This document shows positions 4,131 through 17,616 of a stretch of 64,000 nucleotides of DNA, one piece after another. How positions within the stretch are numbered: position 1 is the first letter of the stretch; each line of letters opens with the position of its first letter. Origin of the DNA: a virus. The notes beneath the pieces are model-generated. The model had not been told where the DNA came from, did not search any database, and saw only the letters and a program-made list of their open reading frames with translations. The stretch covers positions 97,030-161,029 of IMG/VR virus record IMGVR_UViG_3300023184_000034, one strand, 5' to 3'. A program made the position numbers and the translations under genes.

Positions 4131-7088
4131 TTAACCGCGGGCTATTCTCAACCAGCGAGCCAATTCGTTATCGCTTTCTGTAACAGGTTCGAATTGTTTT
4201 GTTGCTGGATTTTGTTTATACTCTTTACCAGACACATCTCGATTTACACCCTTGCTGTCTTTATATAGATCTCCGGGTTTAACACTTGCGGACTTGGGCT
4301 GCGCGGCAATACCACCTGCCTTCTTCTCGCTTGCCGTTGCAATAGCTGCAGCTTCCGCTTGTTTTCTTTTTTCAGCTTTATCTAAAACAGCTTGTGCAGC
4401 CATTGTTGAGTTGAGCCAATCTTTATCGTCGCCCCAATCGTTACGCATCAGCTCGCGGATTTTTTTGATTAAGTCTTTTTGTTCTGGAGTTAATTCGCTT
4501 GTGGTGGTATTAGTCGGTGATGCCGCAACATCTGAACCCGTTGTTGTTGGCTCGTGTGCTGGATCAGTTGCTGGCCCGTTTGCTGTATCAGGTTTTCTCT
4601 CATCGTCAAAACCTCCCAATGCTGCCACTGTTCCTGCACCAATTGCTGCAGCTCCGGCCAAGCCCAATGCAGCAGCCAGCTTGGGATTAGCCTTTATCCA
4701 ACCTGTTAATCTACCGGATCGTTTGGCGGCCCGGGCTTCTGCAGATGCAGCAGCTCTTTCGGCAGCACTGAGTTCCTTACCAGCAACACCTGCAACATCG
4801 TCTGCAGATTTGGATAAGGCCGCACCAGCGCCTCGCACAGCATCGTCTGCAGCATTGGCACCTGCCTTGGCACCTGCACCTACAACATCGTCTGCAGATT
4901 TGGATAAGGCCGCACCAGCGCCTCGCACAGCATCGTCTGCAGCATTGGCAACATTATCGCTGCCTCTGACCACGGCGTTCATTGTGCCACCTAATTCTTT
5001 ACTTGCGGCCCTGCCCGCATTCACCGCGTCATTTGCAGCGGCCTGCGCTCTAGCAGCCGCAATGCTGCCACCACCTAATTCTCCAGGCTTTGTGATTGCA
5101 TTGCCGGCGAGGTCTTTGGTTACAGCAGGTGCCTTTGGTAATTCAGCTCTTGCTGCATTGGCGTTGTTGGCGGTGCGTGTATAAACGGTACCAGCAGGAG
5201 TACTAGCTGGTGGCTTTGTAGCAACTTGCGCTGCTTTCTTTTCACCTGCGCCAAACAGTTTTCCAGCTGCACCTTTAATGGCGTCATATCCTTTGCCTAG
5301 ATATTTTGCACCGTAATCAAATTCTGCTAAAAATTTTGGATCCCATTGAATATTTTCAAGCAATTCGTCATCTGTAATCAACACGCCGTTGTCATCGATA
5401 ACAGTATTGTCAGGTCTTAACCACACACGATACACTGTATCTTCTTCCAAACTCCATTGACCACTTTCAATCATGGCCAATTTTTGTTGCATTGATCTGA
5501 TATCTTCTGCCACTGTGTGTACACGATTTTCTGCAATGCCTGCTTTGGACATTGTGGCTGGATCTGCTTTGCCTGTAACAGGTAGTCCTTGAGCTTTCTG
5601 ATAAGCCATTAGAGCTTTTGCAGTGTTTGGACCCATCTTTCCATCAATTTGAGCACCAACTAAACCAATTGCTTGTTGCAATGCTCCAATACGTTTGTCT
5701 CCGCCTGGCCCAACAAATGTATTAATATCGGATTTTTGAGCAGCAAGGTTGGCACCCACTATTCCTGCTACTTTTGCACCACCTTGCGCAAGTTTACCCG
5801 TTGCCCCAATAGTTTTTGCTGCACCCATTGCAGCTCGACCAGCAAGCGCACCAGGAACTGGCACAGCCAATGAACCTGCCACATTGCCAGCACCATACAA
5901 CCATGGACTACGTGTTTCTGCTTCTTTGCTTGCTGCGGCCTGTTGCGCCAATTCGTCTTTGTATGTGCCAGGACCAAATGCACTCTTGACACCAGCAGCA
6001 ATGTTGTCTCCTGCGCCCAGTGTCACACCATTCCACATACCACGACCAAAATCGCCTGCATCTTTACCAAACTGGCTCATGCTGTATTCATCCAATTGGT
6101 CATCTTGAAATTCGTAACCAAGACTTTCAGTCAGTGATCGAGCAATACTTGAATTGTATTGGATGCCTTCTTGTAAAGCATTCACTCCCATTGCGCCAGC
6201 GGCGCCGCCTGTGAGTCCAGCAAGGCCTTGACCTACCACACCAGCTCCCGCTCTTCTAGCCAATTTCCACGCAGCCAATGCACCAGCAGCTCCGCCAGCG
6301 CCAATACCAACTTTCTGTGCTGTGGTTTTTTCTGGGCTTTGTAGTGGTTTAACGAAAGGACCAGTATTTGGACTTGGCGCAGGAATTGGTTGTGGAGCAA
6401 CATCTCCACCCAGTGATGCATCCAATCGTGCAACCAATGCATTTAATTGTGCAACATCTTGTCCGGAACCTGTGTCTTGTCCAGGCAATCGTGGTCGAGT
6501 TGTTGTTCCTGGTGGAATTCTTGTTGATGGGTTTACTACTTCTCCAGCATTAGGGTCAACAGTTCCAATAGGTAGTGGTGAGTTTACCGGACCGGTAACC
6601 GGACCGGGTGGTTTAACAGCAGGCTCAGTAGTAACAGCAGATGGAAGTTTACCCTGTTGTAATAATTTTACTTGATCTAATGGAACTGAAGCATTTCCAG
6701 CACCGTAACTTGTAAATTTATTCCAGCCGCTGCCTGTTGCTGCCGCTGACGGAACAATACTTACGCCTGCACTGTCTAATAACTGTTTAATATCTTTGTG
6801 TAAATTGGTTATCTGATCCATTCGCACAGGCTCGGGTCTAGGCGTCTCACCACCATATGGAGTTGACCAAAATATAATACCATTTTTTGGATCAATGGTG
6901 TGCCCTGCACCTCTGGCACTTGGATCTTCTTGACCTTTAATCATTGCTTGAATTTTTTGAGCCAATGCTGATTTGGCTTTTACATCTTCTTGTTTTTTTA
7001 TATACGCAGCAAATCTAGCTTCTTCATCACCACTTGCGTCTGCTTCTGCAATAGTGTCCAGCTTGTTCATTAGGTCTCTTAAGTTCAT
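4131..7088 (-). CDS. Large Ala/Gly-rich protein with peptidoglycan-binding domain; candidate internal virion protein
   Basis: 985 residues, ATG at 7088 after GGGGAAC, late promoter 22 bases upstream. N-terminus MNLRDLMNKLDTIAE followed by A, resembling a T4 capsid-targeting peptide and its IxE cleavage site. Around residues 470-515 a PG_binding_1-type segment is visible (IGALQQAIGLVGAQIDGKMG, TAKALMAYQKAQGL). Several Ala/Gly-rich hydrophobic stretches (about residues 265-300, 400-450 and 800-825, the last AALGLAGAAAIGAGTVAALGG) could span membranes. Residues about 715-765 contain a duplicated block. The C-terminus is TESDNELARWLRIARG, a motif echoed in neighbours. A protein that binds or crosses the cell envelope during DNA entry is plausible but unproven; no lytic catalytic domain was recognised. 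Confidence 0.7.
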   Translation of the reverse strand: MNLRDLMNKLDTIAEADASGDEEARFAAYIKKQEDVKAKSALAQKIQAMIKGQEDPSARGAGHTIDPKNGIIFWSTPYGGETPRPEPVRMDQITNLHKDIKQLLDSAGVSIVPSAAATGSGWNKFTSYGAGNASVPLDQVKLLQQGKLPSAVTTEPAVKPPGPVTGPVNSPLPIGTVDPNAGEVVNPSTRIPPGTTTRPRLPGQDTGSGQDVAQLNALVARLDASLGGDVAPQPIPAPSPNTGPFVKPLQSPEKTTAQKVGIGAGGAAGALAAWKLARRAGAGVVGQGLAGLTGGAAGAMGVNALQEGIQYNSSIARSLTESLGYEFQDDQLDEYSMSQFGKDAGDFGRGMWNGVTLGAGDNIAAGVKSAFGPGTYKDELAQQAAASKEAETRSPWLYGAGNVAGSLAVPVPGALAGRAAMGAAKTIGATGKLAQGGAKVAGIVGANLAAQKSDINTFVGPGGDKRIGALQQAIGLVGAQIDGKMGPNTAKALMAYQKAQGLPVTGKADPATMSKAGIAENRVHTVAEDIRSMQQKLAMIESGQWSLEEDTVYRVWLRPDNTVIDDNGVLITDDELLENIQWDPKFLAEFDYGAKYLGKGYDAIKGAAGKLFGAGEKKAAQVATKPPASTPAGTVYTRTANNANAARAELPKAPAVTKDLAGNAITKPGELGGGSIAAARAQAAANDAVNAGRAASKELGGTMNAVVRGSDNVANAADDAVRGAGAALSKSADDVVGAGAKAGANAADDAVRGAGAALSKSADDVAGVAGKELSAAERAAASAEARAAKRSGRLTGWIKANPKLAAALGLAGAAAIGAGTVAALGGFDDERKPDTANGPATDPAHEPTTTGSDVAASPTNTTTSELTPEQKDLIKKIRELMRNDWGDDKDWLNSTMAAQAVLDKAEKRKQAEAAAIATASEKKAGGIAAQPKSASVKPGDLYKDSKGVNRDVSGKEYKQNPATKQFEPVTESDNELARWLRIARG
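4793..4950 (-). repeat. Two identical 68-bp direct repeats inside the 985-residue gene
   Basis: Positions 4793-4860 and 4883-4950 are identical by eye and spaced 90 bases apart. They encode repeated blocks with ADDAVRGAGAALSKSADDV. Identity at DNA level suggests recent duplication. Confidence 0.85.
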
Positions 7089-7109
7089 TGTGTTCCCCGA
7101 ATTAATATG

Positions 7110-7117
7110 TATTTATT
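7110..7117 (-). promoter_or_regulatory. Late promoter motif AATAAATA
   Basis: Minus-strand AATAAATA followed by CAT, close to the T4 late consensus TATAAATA, placed 22 bases before the ATG at 7088. The TAA stop of the upstream gene (7115-7113) is part of the motif. Confidence 0.6.
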
Positions 7118-8873
7118 TCACAGAGCATTTGGGAACAGACATTCCGTTCTTGGTTTGCATACCTGTTTGTGTTTGCCCAGTTCGACAAACACTTGTTTTT
7201 GTTCTGGGTTTGATTGTTTTGGGCCTGGTTGATTTAACCGGCTGCAACATCTCTTCTTTTGTTAGTCTGGCCAGTTTGTTGGCTTCTTTGATTGGATTTT
7301 TTTCTTGAGATTGTTTCTCTTGTTTTTCTTTCCATTCTTTTTCAAATTCTGCTTTGGCTTGTCTAGCACGTTCAGCACTGGCTGTTGATTTGGCCTGCTC
7401 ACGATCCCACGCACGGCTCAGTTTCACCTGTGCAGACATGCCTTCGTTGGGCATGATACCAGGCGCACCTGCTCCTGGTTTGAATCCCATGCTGTGTCCG
7501 GGAATTTCATTCTCTGCTACACTTTTCTTTTTCTTCTTGGCAATAGCAATGGCAGCTTGTTGTGCAGGATTGGCCGCTTCTTTCATCATCACACGTTCAG
7601 CAATCACAGTGGCATATTGATTGATCAAGTTGCGTTTTTGTACATGTTGTTCTGCAATCTCAGATTCCACTTGGTGAAAGTACTTGCCCAAGATGTTTTC
7701 ACGTTCAATTGGTTCAAATACATGTGGTGTTTCTTCTTGGGGTGTTTGATAGTGTTGCATGGCCATTTGTACTGGCAGTGTGACTTTGTGTGGACTTTTG
7801 CCTTCTTTTAAAATACCAACATTATTCTTATTTACAATAGATAAAAACTTATTTAGATTGTTTTCCTGTACAGGAACAGTCTGTTGTGCTTTTTGTTTTT
7901 GTAATTCTGCTTGTGCTGGAGTCATTCTTAGTTTTTGATCATATTTCCAACCAGGAGTAAATATTCCGTCAGGTTGTTGCATGAATCTAGCGTTAGCTTG
8001 TTTTTCAAATTCTTTATGTTGAGCACGATTAAATTCCGCGTCTGGGGATTTGTCATCGATGTTTGATAGACCAATTGATTGATCAATTGCATATTCTTTA
8101 CCTTCTGGGGTTCCTAACATACGTTGAATTAGTTCCCAGTCATCTTTAACAAATGCAGGTTGTTTAAAATTAGGATCAGCTTGTCTTGCTTGATAGTAAG
8201 AACCACTTAATGCCATCATCAAATCAGCAAAGTCACTACCACCTTTCCATGCACCGATGCGTGTTGGGTCTGACGTAGAAGGATGTGCCCCATCAATAAT
8301 GTCTGCAGGATGTTTGTAATTCTTTTTAAAGAAATCAATACTTGGTACTTGATATTTTGCTGGATCAACTTGTGGCGTAGTAGGTGCTGCTGTAGCAGGC
8401 GCTGCAGGTTGATTTATTTCAGCTTCTTTAACAATTTGAAGTAAATTTCTCATCCCAACATCTTCTAAATATTTTTTAGCAAGCTCTGCGTGTGGCGTTC
8501 CGCCTGCTACTAAATCGGCATGCTCTTTTTGTCTTGCCTGTTCCCACGCTTGTAAGTTAGGTCCTGCTAGTTTTTCAGCAGCCGCTTTTAGCTTATCAAT
8601 CTCGGTCCTAGCGTCTGCACTAACACCGACCTCGACTGGAACAAGATTGCCGGAGCCCGTTGCTTCTTTTTCTAGGAAATCATACTTCCCCATTAGTTCT
8701 TGATACCTTTCCCAGTTAGGATTCGAGTAGTTAGGACCAGTTGGATCTGCTTGGGGTGGTTGATTTAACTCAGCTTCTTGAACCACTTGAAGAAATTTCC
8801 TCATACTGTTGGCATCAACTGCTGGGTTAGCAGCCACACTGTCCAACTTCTGAAGTAATTTCGCCATGTCCAT
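7113..8873 (-). CDS. Candidate internal virion protein with repeated KFLQ-VVQEAE modules
   Basis: 586 residues, no enzyme domain recognised. ATG at 8873 (AAAGG eight bases upstream); a second in-frame ATG at 8867. The protein repeats one short module: MRKFLQVVQEAELNQP near residue 24, MRNLLQIVKEAEINQP near 140 and LNKFLSIVNKNNVGILKEG near 340. Each contains or ends in a (V/L)xE site followed by A or G, the pattern cleaved by T4 prohead protease. A Lys-rich segment (AIAKKKKKSVAENEIPG) and IKEANKLARLTKEE follow. It ends in a short SVPKCSVK tail. Packed head-to-tail with the next genes. Structural/internal protein role is inference from these motifs and from neighbours. Confidence 0.6.
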   Translation of the reverse strand: MDMAKLLQKLDSVAANPAVDANSMRKFLQVVQEAELNQPPQADPTGPNYSNPNWERYQELMGKYDFLEKEATGSGNLVPVEVGVSADARTEIDKLKAAAEKLAGPNLQAWEQARQKEHADLVAGGTPHAELAKKYLEDVGMRNLLQIVKEAEINQPAAPATAAPTTPQVDPAKYQVPSIDFFKKNYKHPADIIDGAHPSTSDPTRIGAWKGGSDFADLMMALSGSYYQARQADPNFKQPAFVKDDWELIQRMLGTPEGKEYAIDQSIGLSNIDDKSPDAEFNRAQHKEFEKQANARFMQQPDGIFTPGWKYDQKLRMTPAQAELQKQKAQQTVPVQENNLNKFLSIVNKNNVGILKEGKSPHKVTLPVQMAMQHYQTPQEETPHVFEPIERENILGKYFHQVESEIAEQHVQKRNLINQYATVIAERVMMKEAANPAQQAAIAIAKKKKKSVAENEIPGHSMGFKPGAGAPGIMPNEGMSAQVKLSRAWDREQAKSTASAERARQAKAEFEKEWKEKQEKQSQEKNPIKEANKLARLTKEEMLQPVKSTRPKTIKPRTKTSVCRTGQTQTGMQTKNGMSVPKCSVK

Positions 8874-8877
8874 GTTG

Positions 8878-10905
8878 TTAGCCTTTTACCGGTGTAAGTG
8901 ATCCGGATATACTCTGTAGAATTTGAGGGCCGATATTACCAGCACCTGTACTGGTATTTACAACCACTACCAAGATCATGTCATTGACATTGAAACTTTG
9001 ATTGGCCGAAAAAACTGTACCGTTTTTTGATGGTATACGTTCGTTGCTGGTCTTTATTCCAGGATGATTCCAAGTTCTGTAGTGTCTGCCTGTACTGAGT
9101 TTTGTGTTGTAGTACAACTGGGGGGCAATCAAAATAAAATCCTTACTGAGCATGCCTTGTTTGCGATAAGCATAGACCCAATCCATATTTACATTTACTG
9201 CGCCTTCGTCTCCATTTTTACTGAATTGACTAGCATCTACTTGTTTGTATCCTGGTATTGTAGGAGCCCCATCAGGCAGTTTTATAGATTTTTGTTGTTC
9301 AACAGCACAACCACCGTTACTAATAAATTTACTCTCTATCTTTTGTAACTTTATCAGCATTGGCCTTGTTAACTGCTGACGGAGTTGCGCTGGAATTATC
9401 CAATTGCCAACTCCATTTCTTACGTGAAACGGTGTGGGAATCCACATACCGTTGGGATCTAGATAGCCAAAGTCCGGTGCAGGTTTGACACCCGCCGGCC
9501 ATGTTTTAGGATCTTCAGGGTCAGAATTAGGACCAGCGGTTGATCCAGTTTGACCACCGGCGGCGCCAGCGGCGCCAGCGGCACCTACAGCACCCACGAT
9601 TGCTGGCAATTGACCAGACATGGCCTTGTCTTTAAGATCTTCTATACCGTCTATTGTTGCTTTTATATCTAATTTTAAATCGGCACTGGTGGTAGTTAGT
9701 CCGAAATAACGCACAAGTACGGGCAGTTGTTTTTTGATTGTATCAACATCTTCTTTTGATAAAACTCCAGACTGTATGGCTTGAGCAACGCCGCCGCCAT
9801 CTGCACCTGCACCTGCACCTGCCTCGGCGCCACCGTCGAATCCCGCCACGCCTCCGGTGGGTTTATCTTCTGGTTTTTCTTCTGTGTTATTCCACCAGTC
9901 CCATAATGCTTTACCACCTTCATATGCTCCCCATCCGGTCAATGCTGCACCGCCAATCTTGGGCAAGGCAGCACGAATTGGATTACGGGCTTTAAACGCA
10001 AGTGATCGTCTAGCCAGTGACTGGGCTGTTGTTCTGGCTGCTGTTCTAGCGCCTGCTGTGGCACCCGGACCCATTCTGAACATTCTACCAAGTCCCTTTA
10101 TTAACGGAGCAATAAATTCATTCAGTTGTTCTGGCTTGTTTTCAACTAAAATAGTAAAAATTCTAATTTGTTCAGCAGGTGAAAATTCATGTAGGTTCTC
10201 AGATATCATCCTACGTTTGAGATTATTTCTACTTTCTGTTGTTACATTATATTTTTTAAGAATATTTTTTAATTGAGTTAATGCCGTGGCTAATTCAGCT
10301 GGTGGACCAATATCTTTTTCTGGATCTCCTGTTTTTCCTCGAAGCTTGGCATCTGCAGCACCAATATCTTTTTCTGGATCTCCTGATTTACCCCAAGGTT
10401 TGACACCTGCAGCACCAATATCTTTTTCTGGATCTCCTGATTTACCCCAAGGTTTGACATCTGCAGCACCAATATCTTTTTCTGGATCTCCTGATTTACC
10501 CCAAGGTTTGTCGCCCATGTTTGATGGCTTGTTAGTACTGGTGGGAAGTTCTTCTGCCATAGGGTGTTGTGGTGGGATACCAAATCCCACTTCACCGTCT
10601 GTGGCACCTGCATCACTGGTTTTAGTTGCGGATAATTTTTGAAAATCTTTAGGACTTACAATTATTTTACCACCGCCTTCTAAACCAGCAATAATACTAC
10701 CAGCTGATGAGATGCTTATTTTTCTAAATCCTTGAGATAGAGCCTTTGTTTCAACATCTGGGGTAAGTTCAAACCATAGTTTACTTGGTTCAACTGGAGT
10801 TAAGCCGTTGCCACTTTTGACCATGGGCTTGCCGCCCTGCATGGTTATGTAGTAAGGAGCCTCTCCTTCAGCTATGAATTTAGAAACAATATCTTTTACA
10901 CGCAT
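8878..10905 (-). CDS. Candidate internal virion protein with 18-residue tandem repeats
   Basis: 675 residues, ATG at 10905 after AGGAT. N-terminus MRVKDIVSKFIAEGE is the clearest look-alike of a T4 capsid-targeting peptide (FIAE then a small residue). Residues about 133-203 hold four copies of an 18-residue repeat centred on GKSGDPEKDIG. Residues about 265-320 are hydrophobic and Gly/Ala rich, followed by a Gly-rich linker. The C-terminal 200 residues (DPNGMWIPTPFHVRNGVG onward) look like a folded domain with a LIKLQKIESKF helix; I do not recognise its family. Context places it in the late internal-protein cluster. Confidence 0.6.
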   Translation of the reverse strand: MRVKDIVSKFIAEGEAPYYITMQGGKPMVKSGNGLTPVEPSKLWFELTPDVETKALSQGFRKISISSAGSIIAGLEGGGKIIVSPKDFQKLSATKTSDAGATDGEVGFGIPPQHPMAEELPTSTNKPSNMGDKPWGKSGDPEKDIGAADVKPWGKSGDPEKDIGAAGVKPWGKSGDPEKDIGAADAKLRGKTGDPEKDIGPPAELATALTQLKNILKKYNVTTESRNNLKRRMISENLHEFSPAEQIRIFTILVENKPEQLNEFIAPLIKGLGRMFRMGPGATAGARTAARTTAQSLARRSLAFKARNPIRAALPKIGGAALTGWGAYEGGKALWDWWNNTEEKPEDKPTGGVAGFDGGAEAGAGAGADGGGVAQAIQSGVLSKEDVDTIKKQLPVLVRYFGLTTTSADLKLDIKATIDGIEDLKDKAMSGQLPAIVGAVGAAGAAGAAGGQTGSTAGPNSDPEDPKTWPAGVKPAPDFGYLDPNGMWIPTPFHVRNGVGNWIIPAQLRQQLTRPMLIKLQKIESKFISNGGCAVEQQKSIKLPDGAPTIPGYKQVDASQFSKNGDEGAVNVNMDWVYAYRKQGMLSKDFILIAPQLYYNTKLSTGRHYRTWNHPGIKTSNERIPSKNGTVFSANQSFNVNDMILVVVVNTSTGAGNIGPQILQSISGSLTPVKG
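10301..10510 (-). repeat. Four imperfect 54-bp tandem repeats
   Basis: About 3.9 copies of a 54-bp unit (18 codons, KPWGKSGDPEKDIGAAD-type). The middle copies are almost identical and the copy nearest 10301 is the most diverged. The array is in frame, so copy-number change would lengthen or shorten the protein by 18 residues. Confidence 0.85.
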
Positions 10906-10909
10906 AATA

Positions 10910-12523
10910 TTATCCTAATAAACGTTTTGTCAATGCACGAATTTGATCAACTTCACGATTCTCAACCAGTGCTGGCTGTTCAGTACGATTCAAACGACCA
11001 GTAAGTTCACGCATGCGAGCCAAATCATTTCCTTCGCTGATAGGATCTTTTTTGCCTGCTGGTGCTGGCATCATTGCACCTAATTTTTTAGCTTCTTCTG
11101 CATCTTTGGCACCCGATGGATTTGGCACAACAACTAAATTCTCATCAGTTACTTTTTCTTTCTTCTTTCTTTCTGCCATGTAAGCAGTAGTTTCTTTCAT
11201 GTTCCGCCAAATGGCTGCTGCTACCATCTTGTCATCTGTTTCCTTAACAGTTTGCTTTTTATGACCCTTGGCCGCACGACTCATAGTTTGTTTGGCAGCT
11301 TCTTTAACACCCACTGCCTTCATAGCTCCATACGTCATTGCGGCATTCTTTAAACCTGGCACCATTGCTGATCCCAGAGACTTTGTTTTTTCCCAAGCAC
11401 TCATTGGTGCTGGAGCACCCGCAGCGGTAGGAGTATCTTCTTTAACTTTCTTGCCGCCTTTTTCATCTTTGCCAATGCGCCCGGCGATAACATCACCGCG
11501 TGTTACTTTGTCATAAGGTTTGGCATTGTTGGCCAAGTTACCGTCGCCTTTCTTTTTGGCTTCGTACATGCCACATTCTTTTAAACCGTGTACTGGACAC
11601 TTTTTATCTTTTGGTGTGTGATTGCATTTGCCTTCACCCATTGCTGCACTTGCTCCAGCTTTCTTTAGATCAGCACCAGTGGCTCTCATGCCTGGCACTG
11701 TGGTTGTTGCGGTTGTGGGAATTCCAGATTTTTGTGGTGCACCACTTATTGCGGTTTCTTTAACACCACCGCGCAACTTCTTAAAATCATCTCCGTCTAA
11801 TTTGCCGTTATGATTCTTGTCCAGTTTCTTCTTACCACCTTTGAGTGCTTCGTCAACTTTCTTGCCGTCTTTCACACGAGTCACTGAATCTTTACCAAAA
11901 CGTTTTTCCCAGTTTTTGCCTTCTTTCTCTTCAGCTTTGTCAGCAGCTTTGTTGCCTTCCTTGTCTGCAGCTGATTGTGATTTGGCATTTGATTTGGGCT
12001 CAGTATGCTCTTCATCACTGAATCTGTTGGGATTCTCTTTGTGTTTAGTTACACCTTTGGTTGAACGGTCAATTTCGCCACCTGTGGATGATTTTTCTTC
12101 AGAAACTTTTTCAGCTTGAGCTTTCTTGAGTTCTTTCACTTTTGATTTTGCTTCTGATAATAATTCTTTGATTCTCATTTTTTGTCCTTCGCTCAGTGTA
12201 TCACTGTTGTCCAAGTGGTGACCGTATTCGCTGAATTTCATTTCATATTCTAAATAGTGATATACTGATGCAATATAGTCAGCAGCCTTGGTAATTTTGG
12301 CCTGTACCCATGATTCCAATTGGTCATTGTCTTCCAACTGTTGATACAGCTTGTGTGCGTAGTTGGCTATTTTGAACAAATCAGCTTTGGCCATGGCACC
12401 TTCGCGGTCAGTCTCGCCACCGTGTAAGCCTATGGTGCCGCCCACTGGTTCTGAATCCATTTCTGGCTGATCCATCTCAGGTTGGTCCATTTCTGAGTCA
12501 ATGTTATCTAATTCTGCTGGCAT
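10910..12523 (-). CDS. Charged structural-type protein with EF-hand-like loop and Cys/His cluster
   Basis: 537 residues, Lys/Glu rich, largely disordered in appearance. ATG at 12523 with GGAG and a late promoter upstream. Acidic repeats (EMDQPEMDQPEMD) open the chain. Residues about 235-245 read DKNHNGKLDGDDF, the spacing of a calcium-binding EF-hand or dockerin loop. Residues about 305-322 hold CNHTPKDKKCPVHGLKEC, a possible zinc knuckle. An ISE site precedes GNDLARMRELTGRL near the C-terminus, and the chain ends QIRALTKRLLG. The segment NLANNAKPYDKVTRGDV is one I recall from other aquatic T4-like phages, but without a known function. Probable virion or prohead core component. Confidence 0.55.
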   Translation of the reverse strand: MPAELDNIDSEMDQPEMDQPEMDSEPVGGTIGLHGGETDREGAMAKADLFKIANYAHKLYQQLEDNDQLESWVQAKITKAADYIASVYHYLEYEMKFSEYGHHLDNSDTLSEGQKMRIKELLSEAKSKVKELKKAQAEKVSEEKSSTGGEIDRSTKGVTKHKENPNRFSDEEHTEPKSNAKSQSAADKEGNKAADKAEEKEGKNWEKRFGKDSVTRVKDGKKVDEALKGGKKKLDKNHNGKLDGDDFKKLRGGVKETAISGAPQKSGIPTTATTTVPGMRATGADLKKAGASAAMGEGKCNHTPKDKKCPVHGLKECGMYEAKKKGDGNLANNAKPYDKVTRGDVIAGRIGKDEKGGKKVKEDTPTAAGAPAPMSAWEKTKSLGSAMVPGLKNAAMTYGAMKAVGVKEAAKQTMSRAAKGHKKQTVKETDDKMVAAAIWRNMKETTAYMAERKKKEKVTDENLVVVPNPSGAKDAEEAKKLGAMMPAPAGKKDPISEGNDLARMRELTGRLNRTEQPALVENREVDQIRALTKRLLG

Positions 12524-12545
12524 GAGTATACTCCGTTGTCTTTAT

Positions 12546-12553
12546 GTATTTAG
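12546..12553 (-). promoter_or_regulatory. Late promoter motif CTAAATAC
   Basis: Minus-strand GCTAAATACAT, 23 bases before the ATG at 12523. The stop codon of the 338-residue gene (12552-12550) supplies the TAA of the motif. Confidence 0.5.
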
Positions 12554-13566
12554 CGTCGTTTGATAGGCGGCCCACCAAATAAGCTAGCGCCTTTGATGTC
12601 CAAGCCGTTCTTGGCTGTGCCGTCTTTGTTTTTGGGTTGATTAACTTTGGGTTGCGGTGGTGCCTTGCTGCCTGATTTGCCAGGACTACCAATATAACTC
12701 TTTTTACCACGTGCTTTGCCAGGGCTCAAATGCGGTGCATCTACCGTGCCAATGTTAGCAGCACTGGTTGCACCCACGGTGGCTGACTCACCCATTGGTT
12801 TGCCTTCCGCCACACCTTGCTCTTTACTTTTCTTCAGTATATCAGGATGTGCGAAACCTTTTTTGACTTGTTCTGCCGGACTCATCTTATCAACTAACTT
12901 ACCAAGTTTAGGATCAACATCATGCCAAGTCTTTGGATAGGGCTTTTTATCACCTCCCGCCACACCTTTGTTTCCTTTTGCCATTTTCAATGAGGTTTTT
13001 AGTGCTGCCGTTTTTCCTCTAGGAGTTTTAGCATCATTTGCGGTATCTGCTCTGCGTTGAAGTGGATCGTACCCAAACTTTGGGCTATTAGGATTGCGCG
13101 GTGTTTTGTTGCCTTCGTCATCTACATCATACGCATCTGGATCGCTACGCCATTTAGCAGCCTCCGCCACACCTTGCTCACCATGCTTTTTAGCACGACG
13201 AATTCTATTTGCTAAATGATGTAATCCAGACTCCATACTACGTGCTTTACGCTCTCCAGCAGATAAATTTTGCTCACGATCCGCATATTGCCAATCTGAT
13301 CCACCTAATGCTTCGTATTCTTTTTTCATTTTTGCATATTCAGCTTCGAGGTGCGGAAGATCTGCGTGGTCCTGTGCTTGGTCATCTTGAGATTTTTGAT
13401 GTGCTACTGCTCTATCTGTTTCACGTTTTTCAGAATCTTGTCTGCGTAACTCATCGTGCTCTGGATCACCGTGGATACGTAGATTTTTAAATTTAGGATT
13501 ATTTTTTTGTAAATCTTTAAGAAACGAAGACATATCGTTTTCTTGTACTAACTCATTTATTTTCAT
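12550..13566 (-). CDS. Charged hypothetical protein with EQGVAE motifs
   Basis: 338 residues, no known domain recognised. ATG at 13566 overlaps the TGA of the upstream gene (ATGA, 4 bases). N-terminus MKINELVQEND resembles the tag-plus-VxE pattern of the cluster. Two copies of EQGVAE followed by A or G are visible (about residues 132 and 249), again like prohead-protease sites. Otherwise rich in Lys, Asp, Gln, Gly and Pro and likely disordered (NPNSPKFGYDPLQRRAD). Translationally coupled to the 76-residue gene and the dps gene, so likely made late. Confidence 0.55.
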   Translation of the reverse strand: MKINELVQENDMSSFLKDLQKNNPKFKNLRIHGDPEHDELRRQDSEKRETDRAVAHQKSQDDQAQDHADLPHLEAEYAKMKKEYEALGGSDWQYADREQNLSAGERKARSMESGLHHLANRIRRAKKHGEQGVAEAAKWRSDPDAYDVDDEGNKTPRNPNSPKFGYDPLQRRADTANDAKTPRGKTAALKTSLKMAKGNKGVAGGDKKPYPKTWHDVDPKLGKLVDKMSPAEQVKKGFAHPDILKKSKEQGVAEGKPMGESATVGATSAANIGTVDAPHLSPGKARGKKSYIGSPGKSGSKAPPQPKVNQPKNKDGTAKNGLDIKGASLFGGPPIKRR

Positions 13567-13793
13567 TTTTTAATTCCTCTAAATCCTGTGCCTACAGCAA
13601 CTTCACCACCCATGAACTTGGGCAAACTAAACCATAACTTAAACCATTCTTCGGTTCCGGGTTTGATATTCTGCTCACGCATTATAACTGCTTTTTCAGT
13701 ACCAGTTACACTGATGTTGCTTCCGTCATAAGGTTGCAGGCCTTTAAATTCCTTAATGCCTGCTAACTTTTTAAGACGTGCTAATTCATCCAT
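13563..13793 (-). CDS. Small hypothetical protein with ELARLKKLAG motif
   Basis: 76 residues. The ATG at 13793 overlaps the stop of dps by one base (TAATG). The N-terminus MDELARLKKLAGIKE contains both the LAR motif seen at or near the C-termini of neighbours and an IKE site. The remainder (TEEWFKLWFSLPKFMGGEVA) looks like a small folded domain of unknown function. Confidence 0.65.
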   Translation of the reverse strand: MDELARLKKLAGIKEFKGLQPYDGSNISVTGTEKAVIMREQNIKPGTEEWFKLWFSLPKFMGGEVAVGTGFRGIKK

Positions 13794-14230
13794 TATTTCA
13801 AACTGGACCTTAACATCCAGCTGTGCTTTTTATGTGCATCTTGGCGATCTGCTAAAAAGTTACTCAACCCATGATCTCCAGCTTGTTCAGCCATGTCAAA
13901 TGTGATGCGGAATATATTAGCCATACGCTCGCTATCTTCTAACAACTCACTCAGCATGCCACTCCAATCAGGCACAGCGTTTTCATCTTCAACTTTGGTA
14001 AGCATACTGAACTTGGCTAGGCTTGCTGGTGTGTAAATCTGTAATGCACGTAGGTGTTCCGCAAATGGATCCACAGCACCATATACTTCTTCATATATGG
14101 TTTGAAATAAGTTGTGCAGTTGAGCAAACAACGGACCCTCCACATTCCAATGGAAATTATGTGCTTTTAAATAAAAACTAAATTCGCTGGCAAACGCTGT
14201 TTTCAATGCCAAGTGATATTTCTCGTCCAT
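13793..14230 (-). CDS. dps: Dps-family ferritin-like DNA-binding protein
   Basis: 145 residues. Dps proteins assemble into 12-subunit cages that oxidise and store iron using peroxide and protect DNA. The ferroxidase residues expected at the subunit interface are all present: His27 and His39 (HNFHWNVEGPLFAQLH) and Asp54/Glu58 (VDPFAEHLRALQ). The length is close to that of bacterial Dps. The N-terminus is short and lacks the Lys-rich DNA-binding tail of E. coli Dps. It is locked into an operon of candidate internal proteins by overlapping stop/start codons (TAATG to the next gene, 2-base gap from the previous one), so late expression is likely. Whether it goes into the virion is unknown. Confidence 0.92.
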   Translation of the reverse strand: MDEKYHLALKTAFASEFSFYLKAHNFHWNVEGPLFAQLHNLFQTIYEEVYGAVDPFAEHLRALQIYTPASLAKFSMLTKVEDENAVPDWSGMLSELLEDSERMANIFRITFDMAEQAGDHGLSNFLADRQDAHKKHSWMLRSSLK

Positions 14231-14232
14231 GA

Positions 14233-15303
14233 TTAAATTCCGTATTTGTTCTTTTTAATTTTTGCCACTGCACTGGTTTTATTAACATCAGCAGTTTCTA
14301 AACTTCGATTGTTACTCCATGTCTGTCGCTTACCGCCACCTACTTGTTTAGCGGCAGCATTGATCATATCGTTTTCTTCTTCAGTGTAGGGTGCTAGTAA
14401 TGGATCTCCACCGATCCAATTGTCTGCTTCAATTTTTGTGGGATAATCAGGAGCACCTGCCAATGCAATACCCATCCTGTACCCCATATATGCACTACCA
14501 GTACTTTGATTCATTGAAGGAAATGTTGTTGCATTTTTAATTGCGGCCTTATGATGTCCGTGCATCTTTTGTGTGCCACCGTGACCTTCTCTTAATGATC
14601 TTGCCAACGCATTGGCTTCCTTCAAAGATACATCTGGTTCGGCTTTTTCTTTTTTTGCTCGCACCTTGGGCTTGCTGAAATCTTGCATGCGTGTTTGTGC
14701 TTTTTGCATCAAATCTCTTACTTCGTCATCATCCAGTTCGGGGTTCATTGCATCACGCCAAACAGCAAACTTTTCGTCATCACTCTTGCTTGGATCCATT
14801 AACACATCTCGCATGGGCGTGGCACGTGGCCCTTCTTGTTCACGACTTGGATCGTTGGTTTCTTGACGAGCAATCACATTTAAACTGTTAAAACTAAACG
14901 GAATTCTGCCAGCTTTGTCTGGAACTCCGTTATACTGCTTGACATAACTTAAACCTTTGACTTGATCTTCTCCCACTACCACAGTTACATCAGTATAACC
15001 GTGATGGTCGAGTTTTGTTAACACACGAGTTAAATCAGGCATATCATCTGTGGCAGTGTGAAAAATATGTCCGTGAGCTGGAAATACTTTTTTATAAATC
15101 TGCATTTTTTCTTCTGGCTTGATTGGATCGTCTTTGCCCACTGTGCGGCTAACAACAAAGTAAGGATCAGCACCTTGTTCGTCTGCTTGTGTGATAACAC
15201 TGCTGGCCAGATACATGTGACCTTTGTGACCCATGCCACGCCCCCAGCCCACCACAGCAGCTTTGCCTTCCCCAGTGCGATTAAGAAATTCACGTAACAA
15301 CAT
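14233..15303 (-). CDS. HxGH-family nucleotidyltransferase (cytidylyltransferase/NMNAT-like)
   Basis: 356 residues; ATG at 15303 overlaps the upstream stop (TAATG). The N-terminal domain has the adenylyl/cytidylyl-transferase signature GHKGH (HxGH) within GRGMGHKGHMYLA, then a Rossmann-like core (TDVTVVVGEDQV) and GPRATPMRDVL, matching the second STxxR-type motif. Such enzymes transfer AMP or CMP to nicotinamide mononucleotide, pantetheine phosphate or sugar phosphates; the substrate here is not evident. The domain ends near residue 200. The rest is charged and includes LKEANALARSLREG, a motif shared with neighbours, and a C-terminal segment (PDYPTKIEADNWIGGDPLLA) of unknown role. N-terminus MLLREFL matches the tag-like starts of two adjacent genes. 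Confidence 0.8.
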   Translation of the reverse strand: MLLREFLNRTGEGKAAVVGWGRGMGHKGHMYLASSVITQADEQGADPYFVVSRTVGKDDPIKPEEKMQIYKKVFPAHGHIFHTATDDMPDLTRVLTKLDHHGYTDVTVVVGEDQVKGLSYVKQYNGVPDKAGRIPFSFNSLNVIARQETNDPSREQEGPRATPMRDVLMDPSKSDDEKFAVWRDAMNPELDDDEVRDLMQKAQTRMQDFSKPKVRAKKEKAEPDVSLKEANALARSLREGHGGTQKMHGHHKAAIKNATTFPSMNQSTGSAYMGYRMGIALAGAPDYPTKIEADNWIGGDPLLAPYTEEENDMINAAAKQVGGGKRQTWSNNRSLETADVNKTSAVAKIKKNKYGI

Positions 15304-17201
15304 TAGTCTTTCCTCGGAGCCCAGTTGGCCTGGTCAATGGTTTTTACAAACTGTCCAGGCAAATCATTTTTAAATTTACCACCCGGATGTGCTTGTACAT
15401 ATCCTTCTGGTTTTGTTTGACGAATACCGCCGTGTGTGCCTGAACTCAATGTGTTGATAACTTTCATCTTTTCGTGTGTTAGTAATTCAACAGCACTCAA
15501 CACAGCATCTAATCCAGGATGACTCAACACTTTTTGTGCTTGTGTATTGCTTAGTTTTGCAGTGGCCCATTCTCTAAATTTCTGTTTAACACCAGCCACA
15601 CGTAAATTTTGATTAAAGAAACTGTACAACACATCGCCAGGTTTGCTTAGTCCAGGCTGACCCGCAATAAAGCTATCTATAGCAGCCTTGTTTTGTTTGA
15701 TGTATGACTCGGCGTGTTTTAATCCAGTGTTGTCAACTTTGGGTGCATTTTCAACATATGTTGTGCCTTGTACAATAACATCACCGTTGGATAATTTTTC
15801 AGCATTGGGATAACGTGTTTCATCTGCACCAATGTGTGTGTAGTAACCAGTTGCAGCCACCATAACTTTTGATCTAGAAATTTTCTTACCCAGTGCGCTG
15901 CCTACTGGAATATGGAAACTTGTTATGTTGGGAGTGAAATCATATTCATTGGTACTGGGATTTAACACAGCTGGCTTTAAAGGACTAAACAGTATCCCAC
16001 CTTCGATATATCCTGATTTGGGACTGATGCTTTCAAAGTAAGGCCATAGGTCTGCAAGTCCTTGAGCAAATGCTTTGCGTTGATCTTCTTGTCCGGGTTG
16101 TGCTGTGCCTGTGCCCAACACAAACATGGCCACATCGTCCGGGTCGTTCATCATGGTGGTAACACCACTCTTGGTATGAGTGGTGCCGCGCTTCATGTAG
16201 TCCCATGCGTTCTTTGGAAACATGTGAAATTTGCCATGCTCGTCTCGACCCCAGTATACCACAGGACTTCCGTCCCATTTTAATTCTATACCTTTGCCTT
16301 TGGCAGTCATGTCACGCAGTCGTTCAACTGCATGTAAACCACCCACACTGCCATCAGTGAAAACCAAATCTTCAATGTGTTGATACTTGCGGCCCACAGC
16401 TGCTTCCAACAATGATGTGGCTGGACCACGTAACGGAGCAGCTGACCAACTGGACCCAGATGTTGCAGCATCATGTACTTGTTGTTTTAATGCAGGATCT
16501 TTAATTGCTGACATGATACTTTCTGCACTGCCAAGATCATTACCAGTGTGTCCAGGCCCTAATAATAGTGTGGCTATTTCATCCCAACTATCGGACAACA
16601 AGTCTGCTTTCTTTCTAGCAGCATCTCTTGCGTACAGTCCTTCGTCTGGGCTCCACAGCATGTTCTTAGCACTGGCCAACGCACTCATCACCACTTGCTT
16701 GTGTACACCCTTGTATGGACTACCCTTGGGTATCTGATGTTGATGGAACTTGGATACTTTCTCAGCTTTACGAACAACTTTGATATCACACTGATAAAAT
16801 TGTCCGTTGTATGGAAATTTAATGTGTACAGTTACCCCAGCTTTATAAGTTGCTGGAACACCATTGTCTAATAAAAATTGTTCCAGAGCGTTTCTAGCGG
16901 CCTTGTCATCGTCAGCCAACTTCTTGCTCTGAGGAATTTTAAAATATTGTTTAACTTGATCCATGTCGCAGCTAACATCCAAGTCACCTGTTGGATGTTC
17001 TGGTGTAGGGTCTGTGTTGGCACCACTGCCTTGTACATACAACGGAAAACCTGCTTTGCGAAGATACTTCTTAACTTGCGATAACAGTGCTTGTACTATA
17101 TCCGGAGTAGGATAAAACTCCACAGTTTCAGGCCAGATGTTGCCACCACCTTCTTTGAGAATAGGCTTTCTAACATTAGAAAATAATTCACGTAGTAACA
17201 T
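15303..17201 (-). CDS. Nucleotidyltransferase plus RNA/DNA-ligase-like fusion protein
   Basis: 632 residues from ATG 17201, whose A is shared with the upstream stop (TAATG). The frame is open upstream to 17276 but that extension overlaps the previous gene. N-terminus MLLRELFSNVRKPILKEGGG: tag-like start plus an LKE site. Residues about 30-170 look like a polymerase-beta-type nucleotidyltransferase: GSG, then DLDVSCDM carrying the metal-binding D-x-D, with a later aspartate in QCDIKVV. Residues about 320-480 carry ligase motif I (ELKWDGSPVVYWG, lysine nucleotidylated) and a motif IV-like YIEGGILF. This resembles a family I recall from T4-like phages of aquatic bacteria as a predicted ligase of unknown substrate. 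It may repair RNA or DNA ends on infection; this is inference. Confidence 0.75.
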   Translation of the reverse strand: MLLRELFSNVRKPILKEGGGNIWPETVEFYPTPDIVQALLSQVKKYLRKAGFPLYVQGSGANTDPTPEHPTGDLDVSCDMDQVKQYFKIPQSKKLADDDKAARNALEQFLLDNGVPATYKAGVTVHIKFPYNGQFYQCDIKVVRKAEKVSKFHQHQIPKGSPYKGVHKQVVMSALASAKNMLWSPDEGLYARDAARKKADLLSDSWDEIATLLLGPGHTGNDLGSAESIMSAIKDPALKQQVHDAATSGSSWSAAPLRGPATSLLEAAVGRKYQHIEDLVFTDGSVGGLHAVERLRDMTAKGKGIELKWDGSPVVYWGRDEHGKFHMFPKNAWDYMKRGTTHTKSGVTTMMNDPDDVAMFVLGTGTAQPGQEDQRKAFAQGLADLWPYFESISPKSGYIEGGILFSPLKPAVLNPSTNEYDFTPNITSFHIPVGSALGKKISRSKVMVAATGYYTHIGADETRYPNAEKLSNGDVIVQGTTYVENAPKVDNTGLKHAESYIKQNKAAIDSFIAGQPGLSKPGDVLYSFFNQNLRVAGVKQKFREWATAKLSNTQAQKVLSHPGLDAVLSAVELLTHEKMKVINTLSSGTHGGIRQTKPEGYVQAHPGGKFKNDLPGQFVKTIDQANWAPRKD

Positions 17202-17575
17202 TATATACCCTTGTACTTGCCAGCTTGTATGTGTTCTTGTATATCGTCGTGCATTTTGGAACAAGCTTCTTTGCACATCTTTTCTTCTAATTCATCGGGC
17301 AATTCACGTATGGGGAATTTTTCTTTGTACTGTTTATAGCATTCTTTTATGGCTTCGGCAAACATGGTGGCTTGTACCGGCTTCTTGGCATTGACCAAAT
17401 CTAAACATTTAACTAAAACTGGAAAAACGTGACGACGGTATATATGGTCGTCGTTGTGCATGAAATGCAACAAGTCTTCTATTAGATCGTAGTCTAACTC
17501 ACGTTTATCGCCATGTTGTTTAACATATGCTAATTCTTTAAAATTAGCGTTTTCTAATAACTCTTTTATAAGCAT
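17201..17575 (-). CDS. Small helical hypothetical protein with tag-like N-terminus
   Basis: 124 residues from the ATG at 17575, which has GGGA eight bases upstream; an ATG at 17587 would add four residues but lacks a ribosome site. N-terminus MLIKELLENANFKE matches the MLLREL pattern of the two following genes. The remainder is helical and charged with Cys-containing EEKMCKEACSKMHDD. First gene of the late unit that runs to 12550. Function unknown. Confidence 0.65.
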   Translation of the reverse strand: MLIKELLENANFKELAYVKQHGDKRELDYDLIEDLLHFMHNDDHIYRRHVFPVLVKCLDLVNAKKPVQATMFAEAIKECYKQYKEKFPIRELPDELEEKMCKEACSKMHDDIQEHIQAGKYKGI

Positions 17576-17591
17576 TTTTATTCCCAACAGA

Positions 17592-17616
17592 ATACTCTGG
17601 ATTTAGAGTATTTATC
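17592..17616 (-). promoter_or_regulatory. Late promoter GATAAATACTC with overlapping leader hairpin
   Basis: Minus-strand GATAAATA at 17616-17609, a near-perfect T4 late motif. It runs into an inverted repeat ATACTCT / AGAGTAT (17611-17605 and 17598-17592) with a 6-base loop, so the late transcript would begin in or next to a hairpin. The unit served is 17575 to 12550. Confidence 0.7.

What the first reader, a model, noticed from the sequence alone, without database searches (positions are those of the whole stretch)
4131..17575. Nine-gene late cluster whose proteins carry capsid-targeting-like N-termini and prohead-protease-like sites
Seen: most products start with a short hydrophobic/charged peptide followed by (I/L/V)xE and usually a small residue: MNLRDLMNKLDTIAE-A, MRVKDIVSKFIAE-G, MKINELVQE-N, MDELARLKKLAGIKE-F, MLLRELFSNVRKPILKE-G, MLIKELLENANFKE-L, and MRKFLQVVQE-A slightly inside the 586-residue protein. 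Known: T4 packages internal proteins through a roughly 10-residue N-terminal targeting peptide that gp21 cleaves after (L/I)xE. Inference: this is a general cargo-loading tag attached to unrelated proteins, including a nucleotidyltransferase-ligase fusion and perhaps an HxGH nucleotidyltransferase, so enzymes would be packed in the head and injected with the DNA. The products sit in one run of overlapping late genes, which fits.
Basis: partly seen in the sequence, partly recalled or inferred. Interest (0 to 1): 0.85.

Follow-up and report, generated by a model that had tools for sequence, protein, structure and literature searches.

The report
Tagged, self-cleaving phage head cargo
A freshwater T4-like phage carries a run of late genes, several of whose proteins begin (and some also end) with short peptides that look like removable address labels for loading into the virus head, so that enzymes such as a polymerase-like/ligase-like repair protein would travel inside the particle and enter the cell with the viral DNA.

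Summary
The tags are real, but not on every gene. The interval holds ten genes, not nine. Five begin with an [ILV]xE|small-residue site within 25 residues (14 of 108 other genes do; p=0.0097). Relatives settle the matter: in the 632-aa protein the N-terminal site is kept in 23/23 distinct sequences (3.3 expected), although spacer length varies. The same genome has a gp21-type protease, and gp23's own site is LxE|S. The best outside support is the cyanophage homologue of the HxGH nucleotidyltransferase. It starts with a T4-type targeting peptide (MKKFSAFLNE|A in S-SM1) and was reported in S-SM1 virions.

Best reading: a head-cargo operon using T4-type targeting tags, plus processed polyproteins. 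Packaging, cleavage and injection in this phage are inferred, not shown.

The parts
17201..17575 (-). 124-aa protein, first gene of the operon; MLIKELLE|N tag
   Evidence: [ILV]xE|[AGSN] in 19/30 distinct homologue N-termini, 2.4 expected
17609..17616 (-). T4-type late promoter GATAAATA, 33 nt upstream of the 124-aa start
   Evidence: a GATAAATA also 27 nt upstream of the homologue in G001; sense enrichment 15 vs 1 antisense
15303..17201 (-). 632-aa protein: N-terminal tag, PolX-like nucleotidyltransferase domain, cleavable-looking linker, DUF6267 ligase-like domain
17151..17201 (-). tag of the 632-aa protein, MLLRELFSNVRKPILKE|G (residues 1-17); E17 invariant
   Evidence: 23/23 distinct sequences vs 3.3 expected; residues 8-19 have pLDDT<50
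16404..16406 (-). codon of invariant E266, LLE|A site in the interdomain linker of the 632-aa protein
   Evidence: [ILVM]xE|[AGSN] in 19/22 distinct linkers vs 2.1 expected; [ILVM]xE in 22/22 vs 5.0; 266-280 has pLDDT<50
14233..15303 (-). 356-aa HxGH nucleotidyltransferase (phrog_3041) with a fused C-terminal module; internal LRE|G site at E239 (14587-14589)
   Evidence: cyanophage NTase homologues are CTS-tagged
13793..14230 (-). 145-aa Dps/ferritin-like protein, no tag found
   Evidence: PF00210 E=6.6e-22; 0/9 distinct homologues tagged
13563..13793 (-). 76-aa protein; N-terminus MDELARLKKLAGIKE|F resembles the gp22 scaffold C-terminus
   Evidence: second best hit after gp22 with a gp22-tail profile in this genome
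12550..13566 (-). 338-aa protein; tag MKINELVQE|N at 13540-13566
   Evidence: xxE site before G/S/N/A in all 16 distinct homologue N-termini with loose P3; longer variants such as MKIKELAGLSPKELLE|N
10910..12523 (-). 537-aa charged protein; no N-terminal tag; C-terminal ALVE|NREVDQIRALTKRLLG (E521 at 10961-10963)
   Evidence: C-terminal site in 16/16 distinct sequences vs 2.5 expected, 15 of them immediately before the tail
8878..10905 (-). 675-aa protein; tag MRVKDIVSKFIAE|G at 10867-10905
   Evidence: too few homologues to test
7113..8873 (-). 586-aa protein; tag MRKFLQVVQE|A at residues 24-33 (8775-8804), echoed internally
   Evidence: 6/11 distinct homologues tagged vs 0.5 expected
4131..7088 (-). 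985-aa protein with PG_binding_1; tag MNLRDLMNKLDTIAE|A (7044-7088); C-terminal VTE|SDNELARWLRIARG
   Evidence: 4/4 N-termini vs 0.4; C-terminal site 6/8 vs 1.25; PF01471 E=3e-11
7110..7117 (-). T4-type late promoter AATAAATA, 21 nt upstream of the 985-aa start

Best explanation
The operon at 4131-17575 mostly encodes internal head (cargo) proteins of a T4-like phage related to PA5oct and RaK2/121Q. They carry capsid-targeting propeptides of the T4 internal-protein type: an N-terminal amphipathic peptide of about 8-20 residues ending in (I/L/V)xE|(G/A/S/N). The peptide would dock the protein onto the gp22/gp21 core; the phage's gp21-type protease would then cut after the Glu as it cuts gp23, leaving the mature protein in the head to leave with the DNA. 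The same signal also occurs between domains, so that fused cargo would be released as separate enzymes (PolX-like NTase | ligase-like domain; HxGH NTase | C-terminal module). It also occurs before C-terminal tails that resemble the tail of gp22, in proteins with no N-terminal tag or with both. Shown by sequence: sites, conservation, modular exchange, protease gene, late promoters. Inferred: packaging, cleavage, injection, and the enzymes' purpose (probably nucleic-acid end repair or early counter-defence).
For: S77 prohead protease in the same genome, with gp22/gp23 neighbours; gp23 site LxE|S in 54 of 55 homologues. Sites conserved far above shuffles. Spacer length in the 632-aa tag varies while xxE|G/S just before the folded domain is kept. 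Both 632-aa sites lie in pLDDT<50 segments flanking a confident domain. Free tagged module vs fused module, with an internal MRAxEF/MRAHQF-type tag remnant in 17 of 20 distinct junctions. S-SM1 SSM1_190, an HxGH NTase starting MKKFSAFLNE|A, belongs to T4-GC190, reported among proteins detected in S-SM1 virions (PMC3037559). PA5oct proteins flagged ESI-MS/MS are tagged more often, 13/93 vs 14/224, p=0.025. CTS function in T4 and in P1 DarB is established (PMC9026906, PMC9024508). T4 Alt is cut at both ends by gp21, the C-terminal cut after LTE-619 (PMC5694885).
Against: No virion data for this phage or a near relative. Dps, the 537-aa and (in the window) the 356-aa N-termini lack the tag. Shuffle tests ignore phylogeny. 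Gene starts come from a simple caller. PA5oct's MS list includes likely contaminants (FtsH, ribonucleotide reductase), and its enrichment is modest. The cyanophage CTS and the ones here resemble each other in form, not by demonstrable homology.
Confidence: 0.78

Rival explanations
1. The proteins are prohead core or scaffold components: the xxE sites serve to chop them up so they leave the head, as T4 gp22, gp67 and gp68 are chopped, and little is injected.
For: gp22 here is significantly rich in [ILV]xE[AGS] sites (9 vs 2.0 expected, p<0.002) and the 537-aa protein mildly so (5 vs 1.7, p=0.026); the 537-aa and 338-aa proteins are charged and poorly structured in appearance.
Against: The 632-aa and 356-aa proteins keep enzyme motifs and (632-aa) confident folds, and their sites sit at domain borders; the cyanophage NTase is reported in mature virions.
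Confidence: 0.13
2. The N-terminal peptides are docking helices for another virion part (neck, baseplate or tail) or for protein-protein assembly and are never cleaved.
For: Several tags have the regular helix pattern M(K/R/L)(I/L)(R/K)EL; the operon also encodes a peptidoglycan-binding domain.
Against: The xxE|G/A/S/N feature itself, rather than the helix, is conserved, at varying distance from the start, and recurs in interdomain linkers and before C-terminal tails.
Confidence: 0.05
3. Chance: short Glu-containing N-terminal helices are common.
For: 14/108 other genes match; the window alone gives only p=0.0097.
Against: Conservation across 23 distinct 632-aa N-termini, 16 distinct 537-aa C-termini and two independent domain junctions.
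Confidence: 0.02
4. The 632-aa protein is cytosolic late RNA/DNA repair and the tag is a relic.
For: Polbeta-fold NTases accompany RNA ligases in jumbo phages as RNA repair (RlaP; PMC7824862); PA5oct's possible ligase-like counterpart gp256 is not flagged as detected.
Against: A relic would not keep E17 and E266 invariant in 25 sequences.
Confidence: 0.02

Closest known systems
T4 internal proteins IPI-III and Alt with capsid-targeting sequence (CTS), processed by gp21
   Same: Short N-terminal propeptide ending (I/L)xE|small, same protease family, late genes, unrelated cargo sharing only the leader; Alt also has a C-terminal gp21 cut.
   Different: Cargo is larger and more varied and includes nucleotidyltransferase/ligase-like enzymes; sites also lie between domains; some proteins appear to use a C-terminal tail only.
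Cyanophage cluster DUF6267 + HxGH 'cytidyltransferase' (T4-GC71, T4-GC190)
   Same: The two genes are adjacent (P-HM1, S-SM1); homologous domains; T4-GC190 carries a T4-type CTS and is reported in S-SM1 virions.
   Different: In cyanophages DUF6267 is a separate gene; here it is fused behind a PolX-like domain, and the window's NTase lacks a clear N-terminal tag.
PA5oct structural block gp258-gp243
   Same: Homologous gp22 (40% identity); run of ESI-MS/MS proteins, some with MxIxDI(x)xE tags; gp253 (flagged as detected) looks like the 632-aa PolX-like half as a separate protein.
   Different: Similarity of gp253 is weak (hhalign P=0.0074, probability 5%); no fusion; its NTase gp177 is untagged and not flagged.
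P1 DarB and SPN3US/phiKZ ejection proteins
   Same: Head-packaged proteins with N-terminal targeting propeptides and, in SPN3US/phiKZ, Glu-directed prohead proteolysis.
   Different: Unrelated sequences; SPN3US propeptides are mostly long (>100 residues); SPN3US site is A-x-E rather than (I/L/V)xE.

Membership tests
T4-type CTS cargo (internal proteins) | N-terminal propeptide of about 10-19 residues ending (I/L)xE | tested here: met
   for 632, 124, 985, 586, 338 families, some tags being 8 residues; not met for Dps and the 537-aa N-terminus
T4-type CTS cargo (internal proteins) | gp21-family (S77) prohead protease in the genome with matching gp23 site | tested here: met
T4-type CTS cargo (internal proteins) | late expression | tested here: met
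   late promoter motifs only, no transcript data
T4-type CTS cargo (internal proteins) | present in virions, cleaved at the site | not testable with these tools
   only indirect: cyanophage homologue reported in virions; cleavage not shown
T4-type CTS cargo (internal proteins) | tag sufficient to package a foreign protein | not testable with these tools
   natural swapping between cargo modules seen
DNA polymerase X-like nucleotidyltransferase (632-aa N-domain) | Polbeta palm fold | tested here: met
   Foldseek: top hits pol lambda/beta, E 2e-5, prob 1.0, target TM 0.4-0.6
DNA polymerase X-like nucleotidyltransferase (632-aa N-domain) | GS...(S/T)GDxD and third Asp | tested here: met
   GSGA...TGDLD (D73, D75 invariant) and D139 in all but one of 25 sequences; activity and substrate (DNA or RNA) unknown
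DUF6267 (PF19782) | profile match over cut-off | tested here: met
   E=6.5e-15, 55.8 bits, cut-off 27, best stretch only 54 residues
Covalent nucleotidyltransferase (ligase) superfamily | motif I KxDG and motif IV EG | tested here: met
   KWDG(S/A)P and EG(Y/F)V kept between window and cyanophage DUF6267
Covalent nucleotidyltransferase (ligase) superfamily | ligase fold | tested here: inconclusive
   best PDB hits are tRNA/DNA/RNA ligases but E>=0.08

The most novel reading that the evidence does not exclude
Besides the N-terminal CTS, these phages use a second, C-terminal head-loading tag: a copy of the gp22 scaffold's tail ([DEN][LIV]xx[LIMW][RK]x[LI][AT][GR], cf. gp22 IVDIRRLAGLKF, PA5oct gp22 VEELRRLAGIK) placed behind a (I/L/V)xE|(S/N) site. 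Cargo would join the prohead core by imitating the scaffold and be cut loose by gp21; multi-enzyme polyproteins are opened by the same protease inside the head.
Probability: 0.35. Interest if true: 0.85.

Novelty: new variant of a known kind. Interest (0 to 1): 0.7.

Why it matters
CTS-tagged internal proteins have been studied almost only in close relatives of T4, where the ones with known function block restriction enzymes. If right, the same address label loads nucleotidyltransferases, ligase-like enzymes and large proteins in freshwater T4-like jumbo phages and marine cyanophages, and the head protease opens polyprotein cargo. That gives a sequence rule for predicting injected proteins in many uncultured phages, explains why a 'cytidyltransferase' is a virion protein in cyanophages, and suggests natural modular tags for protein delivery.

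Tried and rejected
Profile searches of PDB sequences with the 632-aa alignment found nothing real. Pfam/PHROG gave nothing for the 586, 675, 537, 338, 76 and 124-aa proteins beyond weak hits. PA5oct gp256 as DUF6267 homologue: not supported by hhalign, kept only as a visual lead. Excess of xxE sites per protein by composition shuffle is not significant for most cluster proteins, so 'riddled with sites' is rejected for all but gp22 and perhaps the 537-aa protein. The gp22-tail profile finds no convincing hits in P-SSM2, S-RIM8 or 121Q apart from 121Q gp22 itself, so the scaffold-mimic idea is limited to this clade and perhaps PA5oct. The exact T4 late promoter TATAAATA is not enriched in the window; only the NATAAATA form upstream of genes is. 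Supplementary tables of the virion proteomics paper could not be read, so whether DUF6267 (T4-GC71) was detected is unknown.

Full report
Setting. The window is bases 97,030-161,029 of a 161-kb virus record. The record also holds gp20-, gp21-, gp22- and gp23-like genes; gp21 is a Peptidase_S77 match at E=1.5e-26. gp22 is 40% identical to that of Pseudomonas phage PA5oct and about 30% to RaK2/121Q-type phages. Near relatives are IMG/VR contigs, one of them 345 kb long, so this record is probably incomplete; a freshwater source is my reading of the relatives' abundance, not a tool result.

Observation. Ten genes lie in 4131-17575, all on the minus strand. Five have [ILV]xE|[AGSNT] in residues 4-25 against 14/108 other genes. 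That alone is modest. Homologues make the case. For the 632-aa protein, 23 of 23 distinct N-termini keep [ILVM]xE|[GASN] against 3.3 in shuffles, although the spacer length changes (MLLRELFSNVRKPILKE|GGGNIW, MLLRELFRTIKTPLLE|GGGNIW, MLLRELFVSLHNKKIINE|GGNIW). The 124-, 985-, 586- and 338-aa families behave alike. gp23 of the group has LxE|S in 54 of 55 homologues, the expected protease site by position, so the tag sites agree with the phage's own protease. The operon starts behind a T4-type late promoter.

The 632-aa protein. AlphaFold gives two well-folded parts with low-confidence segments at 8-19 and 266-280, where the two invariant Glu residues, E17 and E266, lie. The linker Glu is preceded by I/L/V/M at P3 in 22 of 22 distinct sequences (5.0 expected). 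The N-part matches DNA polymerases lambda, beta and mu and a viral PolX (E 2e-5). The C-part is DUF6267 with ligase motifs KWDG and EGYV shared with cyanophages; its fold search is only suggestive. Polbeta-fold enzymes accompany RNA ligases in jumbo phages as RNA repair (PMC7824862), so DNA or RNA end repair are both open. In PA5oct a protein resembling the N-part is separate and flagged ESI-MS/MS, but the similarity is weak.

The 356-aa protein. It is an HxGH nucleotidyltransferase. Its C-terminal ~115 residues occur in relatives as a separate gene directly downstream that starts MRAKEF[IL]xE|. In relatives a copy is also fused to the NTase, and 17 of 20 distinct junctions still contain an internal MRAxEF/MRAHQF-type peptide, with its ATG. 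Fusion therefore seems to have joined tagged cargo end to end and kept the tag. The window's copy has LARSLRE|G there.

C-terminal tags. The 537-aa protein, which has no N-terminal tag, ends in [ILV]xE|[SN] followed by a tail of the type xx[VLI]xxI/MRxLTxRLLG in 15 of 16 distinct sequences; the 985-aa protein has xxE|S/N before ELxRWLxIARG in 6 of 8. These tails resemble the end of scaffold gp22 (IVDIRRLAGLKF; PA5oct VEELRRLAGIK; Atu_ph07 INDLKRLAGIKK), as does the start of the 76-aa protein (MDELARLKKLAGIKE|F). A motif for these is found 5 times in this genome and 5 times in G001, against 0.2-0.3 in shuffles, mostly in this operon; the motif was drawn up after seeing examples, so the count is not independent. 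T4 Alt has a C-terminal gp21 cut (PMC5694885), so a C-terminal propeptide has precedent.

Independent support. The cyanophage homologues of the 356-aa NTase nearly all start with a T4-type CTS (S-SM1 MKKFSAFLNE|A, S-SM2 MKSFFQFLSE|A, S-SRM01 MKNFHQFITE|A and others). Sullivan et al. 2010 report this protein (T4-GC190, putative citidylyltransferase) among those detected in S-SM1 virions (PMC3037559). Untagged NTases exist in PA5oct (not flagged as detected), P-HM1 and a Vibrio phage.

Conclusion. The operon is best read as a head-cargo operon using T4-type targeting propeptides, extended to polyproteins and perhaps to a C-terminal tag. The concept of a CTS is known (PMC9026906, PMC12373910); its spread to this cargo and its internal and C-terminal use were not found in the papers searched, which cover open-licence papers only. 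Packaging, cleavage and injection remain to be shown.

Noticed in passing
window 7113-8873 and 10910-12523: Two short modules are shared with cyanophage proteins of other make-up: residues 313-350 of the 537-aa protein are 70% identical to the N-terminus of S-RIM8 SXDG_00169 (MYEAKKKGDGNLANNA..), and 586-aa homologues end in WxGYxPVGTKKKGGxTVPNCVPKE, like P-HM1 PHM1_163.
   Followed up: partly
window 10290-10616: The 675-aa protein holds four near-identical tandem copies of KPWGKSGDPEKDIGAAD.
   Followed up: no
L003:7727-8758 (-), G001:C1:99648-100853: A protein near the portal and tape-measure-like genes also starts with a tag-like peptide (MKVYEIITPQPLNE|F; G001 MKVYEIIVEKKVHE|G).
   Followed up: no
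G001:C1:30536-32280: A second tagged pair (MNFKDLMTRLQAIEE|N and MKSFKNYLTE|S) looks like PA5oct gp281/gp282, both flagged ESI-MS/MS; gp281 starts MFNINDILRLAGVQAVKE|S.
   Followed up: partly
NC_071039 180349-181020 (PA5oct gp212): Annotated head maturation protease, but the sequence reads like ClpP; the true S77 protease is gp331.
   Followed up: no
window 13793-14230: An untagged Dps-like protein is kept inside the tagged operon in many relatives; how or whether it enters the head is unexplained.
   Followed up: no
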